DNA of 64,000 nucleotides from Propionibacteriales bacterium (GTDB taxonomy: Bacteria > Actinomycetota > Actinomycetes > Propionibacteriales > Nocardioidaceae): positions 1-64,000 of the forward strand of contig JAPLCC010000049.1 in the NCBI GenBank assembly GCA_026392415.1, read 5' to 3'. This document shows, in pieces, positions 1-2,069 of this stretch; the stretch's first letter is position 1; each line of letters starts with the position of its first letter. Under the pieces are notes generated by a model, which was given only the letters and a program-made list of their open reading frames with translations, was not told the origin of the DNA and did no database searches. The translations under genes were made by a program, and so were the position numbers.

Positions 1-259
1 CCAATTCCACGAATTTGACGGAGTCCGCGTCTCCGGTTTCCGTGAAATAATACTCCTTGGCCTGATAGAGCTGGCGAAGGTTGTTTTCGATCAGGCTGCG
101 GGCGGCGCGATCCTGGACGCGGCCGATGACGATCATGGCCAGGGTGCTGAGAATGGTCACGATCGAGACCACGATCATGATCTCGATCAGGGTGAAACCG
201 CCTACGCCCGAAGGCTTCGGCGAGACGAGTGCACGGGAATGGGAGCGGAAGGATTTCAT
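1..259 (-). CDS. Type IV prepilin-like protein (N-terminal methylation motif), partial, runs off the window edge
   Basis: My translation of the complement from ATG at 259: MKSFRSHSRALVSPKPSGVGGFTLIEIMIVVSIVTILSTLAMIVIGRVQDRAARSLIENNLRQLYQAKEYYFTETGDADSVKFVEL; classic G|FTLIE motif followed by a hydrophobic helix. Confidence 0.85.
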   Translation of the reverse strand, partial: MKSFRSHSRALVSPKPSGVGGFTLIEIMIVVSIVTILSTLAMIVIGRVQDRAARSLIENNLRQLYQAKEYYFTETGDADSVKFVEL

Positions 260-474
260 TTGGCGCCCTCCTGCTTCGGATTGGTGGGAAAAACAAGATA
301 CATGCCGGCGGTGAAGACGATGACGGAGGCGAGGCGCAGCGCCGTGAGGGGCACGCTGACCGACCACTCCAACGGCACGTCCCAGAGATAAGACCAATTG
401 GACTCCAGCCGCGTGCCGTCGGCGTGGATGATGTAGGTCGGCGGCAGGAGCCAGACGAGGGCCAGGGCATTGCA
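256..474 (-). CDS. C-terminal part of a membrane protein of unknown function, truncated at the putative contig junction; its stop overlaps the prepilin start (ATGA)
   Basis: ORF 256..825(-), last ~71 aa NALALVWLLPPTYIIHADGTRLESNWSYLWDVPLEWSVSVPLTALRLASVIVFTAGMYLVFPTNPKQEGAK; residues upstream of ~474 are only antisense to SixA. Confidence 0.55.
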   Translation of the reverse strand, partial: CNALALVWLLPPTYIIHADGTRLESNWSYLWDVPLEWSVSVPLTALRLASVIVFTAGMYLVFPTNPKQEGAK

Positions 475-849
475 GCCGAGGTGGCCTACGTGTCGTACGC
501 CGCGCGCACCCGCGAGACCTGGGAGGTGCTCGCTGACGGCGCCGGCTGGGGGATCGAGCCACAGATCGACGGCGCGCTCTACGGCACCGACGAGTTCGGC
601 GTGCTCGAGCTGGTCCACACGACGCCCGCGAGCGTCGGCACCGTCGTCGTGGTCGGGCACAACCCCACGATGGAGATGCTGGCCCAGCAGCTCGACGACG
701 GCGAAGGCGACGCGACGGGTGCCGTCGAGCTCGGAACCTTTCCGACCAGCACCGCCGCCGTCTTCGAGATCGACGGCGACTGGACCGACCTGGCGCCGAT
801 GCAGGCGCGCCTGCAGGCCTTCCACGTCGGTCGGGCCGACGCGAACTAG
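475..849 (+). pseudogene. SixA-like phosphohistidine phosphatase, 5'-truncated (no RHG motif)
   Basis: AEVAYVSYAARTRETWEVLADGAGW...VVVVGHNPTMEMLAQQLDD; VGHNP motif present, N-terminal RHG catalytic motif absent. Confidence 0.7.
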
Positions 850-2069
850 CCCAGCGGGGGAGCCGGGGTGATGATCCCGTCGGCCGCGTCGGCGGCGACG
901 ATCTCCTCGCGGCTGATGCCGAGCAGGTACATGATCGTGTCGAGGTAGGGCACGTTCAACGAGGTGTCGGCCGCCTCGCGGACGACCGGGCGGGCGTTGT
1001 AGGCGATCCCGAGCCCGGCGGCCTCGAGCATGTCCAGGTCGTTCGCGCCGTCACCGATGGCGATCGTCGCTGCCTCGGAGACGCCCAGGTCGGCGGCGAA
1101 CTCGCGCAGCGCCTGCGCCTTTCCGGCCCGGTCCACGACGGCACCGATGACTTCTCCCGTCAGCCTGCCGTCGATGATCTCGAGGGTGTTGGCGCGGGCC
1201 CGGTGGATGCCGAGGTCGGCAGCGAGTCGATCGGTGATCTGGCTGAAGCCTCCTGACACGATCGCGAAGCGGTAGCCGAGTCGACGCAGCGTGCGCACCA
1301 TGGTGCGGGCGCCGGGGTTGACCACGATGGCGTCGTAGACCTGGTCGAGTACGGCGGCGTCGAGACCGGCGAGCAACTTCACCCGGGCCCGGAGCGACTG
1401 TTCGAAGTCGAGCTCGCCCCGCATCGCCTGCTCGGTGATCTCCGCGACCTCGGCCCCGTGCCCGGCGTGCTCGGCGAGCATCTCGATCACCTCGCCCTGG
1501 ATCAGGGTGGAGTCGACGTCCATGACGATCAGGCGCATGCCGTGGCGCAGCAGGTTGGCAGGCTGGACGGCGACGTCGATGCCGTGGACAGCCGCTTCAC
1601 TCGCCAGCAGGATGCGCAGCCGGTCGGGTGCAGCGCCGGAGACGTGGATCTCGATCGCCGTGACGGGATAGCGAGCCATCCGTTCGATCCGGTCGATGTT
1701 GCCACCACAGTCGGCGATCCGGCCGGCGATCGCCGCCATCGCGGACGCCTTGAGCGGTCCACCGATGACCGTCACATGGGCGCGGTCCTCCGCACGGGAC
1801 CTGTTGTCGCCCGACCCCTTCTCGATCTCGACACTCATGCCGAGACCCTCGACGGTGGCCGTCACGGCCCTTCGGAGCTTCTTCCCGTCACGAGGCGCGC
1901 TGACCAGGACTCCCAGCACGAGCTTGCCGCGCATCAGGATCTGCTCGAGGTCGACCACGGCGACACCGGACTGGGACAGGGTCTCGAGGACGGCAGAGGT
2001 CACGCCTGGCCGGTCGGTACCGGTGACCGTGATCAGGAGCGTGTCGTGGGCGGTGTCGTGTGGGCTCAT
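846..2069 (-). CDS. serB: Phosphoserine phosphatase with N-terminal ACT domain
   Basis: 407 aa; MDVDSTLIQGEVIEMLAEHAG, AIVSGGF, AIGDGANDLDML motifs. Confidence 0.93.
   Translation of the reverse strand: MSPHDTAHDTLLITVTGTDRPGVTSAVLETLSQSGVAVVDLEQILMRGKLVLGVLVSAPRDGKKLRRAVTATVEGLGMSVEIEKGSGDNRSRAEDRAHVTVIGGPLKASAMAAIAGRIADCGGNIDRIERMARYPVTAIEIHVSGAAPDRLRILLASEAAVHGIDVAVQPANLLRHGMRLIVMDVDSTLIQGEVIEMLAEHAGHGAEVAEITEQAMRGELDFEQSLRARVKLLAGLDAAVLDQVYDAIVVNPGARTMVRTLRRLGYRFAIVSGGFSQITDRLAADLGIHRARANTLEIIDGRLTGEVIGAVVDRAGKAQALREFAADLGVSEAATIAIGDGANDLDMLEAAGLGIAYNARPVVREAADTSLNVPYLDTIMYLLGISREEIVAADAADGIITPAPPLG

What the first reader, a model, noticed from the sequence alone, without database searches (positions are those of the whole stretch)
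1..849. Chimeric junction near 471-482: foreign prepilin locus fused into a decapitated SixA gene
Bases 1 to ~474 encode on the minus strand a prepilin (G|FTLIE...ENNLRQLYQAKEYYFTETG) and the tail of a membrane protein overlapping it by ATGA, with visibly lower GC and codon use unlike the rest. At ~475 the sequence switches to the middle of a SixA-type phosphatase (AEVAYVSYAARTRETW...VVGHNPTME) lacking its RHG start. Both genes are broken at the same point. The prepilin style recalls PVC-group (e.g. Verrucomicrobiota) proteins, which is inference. An assembly chimera is more likely than recent transfer.
Basis: partly seen in the sequence, partly recalled or inferred. Interest (0 to 1): 0.7.

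Follow-up and report, generated by a model that had tools for sequence, protein, structure and literature searches.

The report
Assembly chimera at a contig end
The first 459 bases of this actinobacterial contig are a scrap of a Verrucomicrobiota genome joined on by the assembly at a 25-base word that both genomes share, so the "broken" phosphatase gene is almost certainly whole in the real organism and nothing new is present.

Summary
Window base 1 is base 1 of contig C48 of a 60-contig genome. Bases 1-459 are foreign; bases 485 onward are native. The 25 bases between them (460-484) also occur exactly, 28 bases inside the end of contig C54, which carries the missing half of sixA. The two ends look like crossed products of one event: foreign-left + word + host-right is C48; host-left + word + a 28-base tail is C54, and that tail continues the foreign membrane-protein frame. 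All 40 other genus genomes have a full-length sixA hit; in five loci serB-sixA-TIGR02206-fabI is in order. The foreign pair (small membrane protein + prepilin, ATGA overlap) is native to a Verrucomicrobiota family. Of 26 terminal overlaps between contig ends, 23 are exactly 141 bases, the mark of a MEGAHIT-type assembly ending at k=141 (PMC10914622). Such runs start at k=21, then use k=29, so a 25-base word is merged in the first graph; several to dozens of such words per Gb are expected by chance. This is an artefact; reads were not available to prove it.

The parts
2..259 (-). Foreign (Verrucomicrobiota-type) prepilin-like gene, 5' part, cut by the contig end
   Evidence: PF07963 E 6e-5; TIGR02532 above cut-off; relatives follow the same membrane protein with ATGA overlap in 7 Verrucomicrobiota genomes
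256..459 (-). Foreign small membrane-protein gene, 3' part; its frame continues through the shared word into C54 bases 1-28
   Evidence: 42-54% identity to proteins in 7 genomes of one Verrucomicrobiota family; frame across the word THFRPLKLFHLGCNALALVW
460..484 (.). 25-base shared word GGCCAGGGCATTGCAGCCGAGGTGG: the junction itself, coding in both parents
   Evidence: Exact match to C54:29-53 on the minus strand
485..849 (+). Native sixA-like phosphatase gene, 3' part; the 5' part is on C54:27-182(-)
   Evidence: C54 hit residues 1-52, C48 hit residues 43-172; 64-74% identity to intact single genes in the four nearest relatives
846..2069 (-). Native serB (phosphoserine phosphatase, ACT + HAD), convergent with sixA; anchors the host side of the junction
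   Evidence: neighbour of sixA in relatives

Best explanation
This is a technical chimera. A Verrucomicrobiota genome (X) and this actinobacterial genome, sequenced together, happen to share a 25-base word: X has it inside a small membrane-protein gene, the host inside sixA. A multi-k de Bruijn assembler starting at k=21 treats the word as one node, and the paths through it were crossed. One product, X-left + word + host-right, became the start of contig C48 (this window). The other, host-left + word + X-right (28 bases), became the start of contig C54. Shown: the shared word, the two half genes on two contig ends, the intact arrangement in relatives, the native X gene pair in Verrucomicrobiota, the 141-base end overlaps. 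Inferred: that the data are a metagenome, that the assembler was MEGAHIT or alike, that the C54 tail is from X rather than a third genome, and that the crossing happened in the assembly graph rather than in library preparation. The stated confidence is for a technical chimera arising in the assembly.
For: Window base 1 is the contig end. The exact 25-mer is in C54:29-53(-), with the sixA N-terminus on its far side. The C54 tail (28 bases, about 36% GC by count) is in frame with the foreign membrane protein and aligns in position with Verrucomicrobiota N-termini. All 40 other genus genomes have a full-length sixA hit; serB lies within 1.3 kb of it in all 19 loci compared, under 100 bases away in 11, and serB-sixA-TIGR02206-fabI is in order in five. 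The X pair with ATGA overlap is in 7 genomes of one Verrucomicrobiota family. 23 of 26 terminal overlaps are exactly 141 bases; the MEGAHIT k-list 21,29...,119,141 and end overlaps of maxK are described in PMC10914622. Expected chance 25-mers shared with 1 Gb of other sequence: 7-64; of 29 bases 0.03-0.35. X has no other copy in this genome and its prepilin no match in plasmid or phage records.
Against: No reads were available, so coverage and mate pairs across 440-520 were not examined. The C54 tail is only 28 bases, so its assignment to X rests on frame and position. The topology (left and right junctions sharing a core word) is also what integration of a circle would give. How both crossed paths survived later k values is not worked out.
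Confidence: 0.87

Rival explanations
1. A library or amplification chimera: template switching between the two genomes at the 25-base word produced real chimeric fragments, which were then assembled faithfully. Also an artefact.
For: Template switching at short identity can give both reciprocal products, as seen at C48 and C54.
Against: Chimeric fragments are normally rare beside the parental ones, and here no contig of this genome carries the parental host path. The assembler reading needs no unusual reads, and the word length fits the first step of the inferred k-series.
Confidence: 0.1
2. A real integration: a circular element X recombined with the chromosome at a 25-base core inside sixA, giving attL on C54 and attR on C48.
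For: Left and right junctions share one exact core word and the host gene is split precisely there.
Against: X's genes are a native two-gene unit in a Verrucomicrobiota family, with the core inside coding sequence conserved there (LGCNAL). No integrase is visible on X's 459 bases. The prepilin has no match in plasmid or phage records and only one 29-residue match in viral contigs. Host and donor belong to different phyla with different composition.
Confidence: 0.02
3. A recent horizontal transfer of a chromosomal fragment from a verrucomicrobial donor into sixA of this lineage.
For: Foreign composition next to a split host gene.
Against: The foreign DNA runs to both contig ends. The crossing is at one shared word without loss of host bases. 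None of the genus genomes searched carries the prepilin; only weak pilin matches were found.
Confidence: 0.01

Closest known systems
Interspecies chimeric contig from a short-word collision in a de Bruijn metagenome assembly
   Same: Two unrelated genomes joined at a short exact word near a contig end; gene halves recoverable from two contigs; end overlaps of 141 bases as in MEGAHIT k=141 runs
   Different: Unusual only in that both crossed products can be seen in the same genome bin
SixA-like phosphatase gene next to serB in actinobacteria of this genus
   Same: Gene neighbourhood; conserved RHxKAEQ and VVGHNPTM segments
   Different: Split over two contigs in this assembly only
Verrucomicrobiota prepilin-like proteins preceded by a small membrane protein (7 genomes of one family)
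   Same: Order, ATGA overlap and both protein sequences (42-54% identity for the membrane protein)
   Different: Nothing beyond normal divergence; cut by the contig end

Membership tests
Technical (assembly) chimera | Junction lies at or near a contig end | tested here: met
   Window base 1 is C48 base 1; the C54 junction is 28 bases from its end
Technical (assembly) chimera | Exact shared word at the joint, no shorter than the assembler's smallest k | tested here: met
   25-base word; the inferred k-series starts at 21, then 29; the assembler itself is inferred
Technical (assembly) chimera | Each half has a proper continuation elsewhere | tested here: met
   sixA N-terminus on C54; frame of the foreign gene continues on the C54 tail
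Technical (assembly) chimera | Read coverage drop or discordant mates at the joint | not testable with these tools
   No reads held
Integrative element insertion | Integrase or other mobility gene on the insert | tested here: inconclusive
   None in the 459 bases seen; the rest of X is not available
Integrative element insertion | Insert related to mobile elements | tested here: not met
   Prepilin has no match in plasmids or phages; the gene pair is found in Verrucomicrobiota genomes
SixA phosphohistidine phosphatase | Score above the NCBIfam TIGR00249 cut-off | tested here: not met
   46.4 bits against 74.5 for the two halves read together; sixA-like, not an assigned member

The most novel reading that the evidence does not exclude
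A circular verrucomicrobial DNA integrated by a Campbell-type event at a 25-base core inside an actinobacterial sixA: a cross-phylum integration with an attachment site in coding sequence.
Probability: 0.02. Interest if true: 0.6.

Novelty: not a real feature. Interest (0 to 1): 0.06.

Why it matters
It matters only as quality control. A genome record contains 459 foreign bases at one contig end and 28 probably foreign bases at another, which give false gene calls (a verrucomicrobial prepilin in this actinobacterium, a disrupted sixA). Two contig ends that share an internal word of 21-28 bases, each with half of one gene, are a simple test for this kind of artefact.

Tried and rejected
A genome-collection scan with the membrane protein alone found nothing, probably because single-sequence patterns were too strict; whole-genome searches inside Verrucomicrobiota then found it. 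Viral-contig scans with the sixA half found nothing and with the prepilin one 29-residue hit. The C38 hit (45 bases, 82%) lies in an unrelated coding stretch. A census of shared words between all 120 contig ends (1500 bases each) was made to look for further swapped ends; the isolated words printed, down to 26 bases, are mostly repeats and were not followed up one by one, so whether other ends are chimeric too is open. C48's start is not the lowest contig end by composition: it ranks sixth of 120. 16S rRNA (C32 end) and 5S rRNA (C49 end) explain two of the lower ones, and C4 start carries an RHS-like coding end; so composition alone would not have proved the case. Recent transfer and integration were considered and judged unlikely for the reasons given under rivals.

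Full report
What is there. The window is C48:1-64000 of a 4.19 Mb genome in 60 contigs (98% complete, 0.5% contamination), so the finding lies at the very end of a contig. On the minus strand, 2-259 encodes the start of a prepilin-like protein (PF07963, TIGR02532), and the gene before it ends in an ATGA overlap at 256-259. On the plus strand from about 475 to 849 there is the second half of a SixA-like phosphatase, followed by convergent serB. GC of 1-459 is 60.1% against 69.4 +/- 2.5%, and its Markov score is below all 1253 other stretches of that length in the window.

The missing half. A search of the genome with the region gave one telling match: bases 460-484 occur exactly near the end of contig C54 (29-53, minus strand). 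Read from that end, C54's minus strand encodes the SixA N-terminus (MDSIRRLVVVRHSKAEQ...LAGQGIAAEV), which continues at the window's AYVSYAARTRETW. A search with the combined reading hit C54 over residues 1-52 and C48 over 43-172. Beyond the shared word, C54 ends in 28 AT-rich bases. These 28 bases plus the word plus the window's foreign part form one open frame, THFRPLKLFHLGCNALALVWLLPPTYIIHADG....

Host side in relatives. All 40 other genomes of the genus that were searched have a full-length hit to the SixA-like protein. In all 19 neighbourhoods compared, serB lies within 1.3 kb of sixA, and in 11 of them less than 100 bases away. In five (L007, L008, L009, L011, L012) the order serB-sixA-TIGR02206-fabI is complete, i.e. 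the genes of C48 and C54 are neighbours.

Foreign side in relatives. The membrane protein has no Pfam or NCBIfam match, but a whole-genome search inside the class of a Verrucomicrobia MAG (the genome of L027, Pedosphaerales) found it in one genome. In that genome's family seven genomes carry it with E-values from 1.7e-22 to 4.6e-17. In each of the seven a copy is followed by a prepilin with the same 4-base overlap. The segment coded by the shared word (HLGCNALA) aligns with LGCNAL/MGCNTL in these relatives, so the word is native to the foreign gene as well as to sixA. A search of 99 relatives of the host with the prepilin found only weak pilin-type matches.

Why a 25-base word. Of 26 exact terminal overlaps among the 120 contig ends, 23 are exactly 141 bases. 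The COBRA paper states that MEGAHIT contig ends overlap by maxK and uses the list 21,29,39,59,79,99,119,141 (PMC10914622). A word of 25 bases is merged at k=21 and separated at k=29. By chance 7 to 64 shared words of 25 bases are expected between a genome of this size and 1 Gb of other sequence, against 0.03 to 0.35 words of 29 bases. The coincidence therefore needs no biology. That the assembler was MEGAHIT and that the sample was a metagenome are inferences from the contig-end pattern.

What is not shown. No reads were available. The exact step at which the paths crossed, and why both crossed products survived, is not resolved; template switching in the library would leave the same contigs. 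The assignment of the 28-base C54 tail to the same donor rests on its frame and position. Neither gap changes the verdict that the junction is technical.

Verdict. Interest is low apart from quality control.

Noticed in passing
L227, L229-L234, L237 (Verrucomicrobiota genomes); window 256-484(-): A family of 72-85 aa membrane proteins (motif close to RLEHNLYYxWxVPxxWSVNLP) without Pfam or NCBIfam match, overlapping a prepilin gene by ATGA in seven of the eight loci examined in one Verrucomicrobiota family. Function unknown; perhaps a partner of the pilin-like protein.
   Followed up: partly
G000:C4:1-1500 (L110): Contig starts near the end of an RHS-repeat-like protein followed by lower-GC genes, as in variable RHS tails; not examined further.
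   Followed up: no
all 60 contigs of the genome (L107-L226): 23 pairs of contig ends share exactly 141 bases, so many breaks are at repeats and some could be joined by end overlaps.
   Followed up: partly
G000:C32:51082-52581 (L198): The contig ends 136 bases into a 16S rRNA gene, as usual for short-read assemblies.
   Followed up: yes
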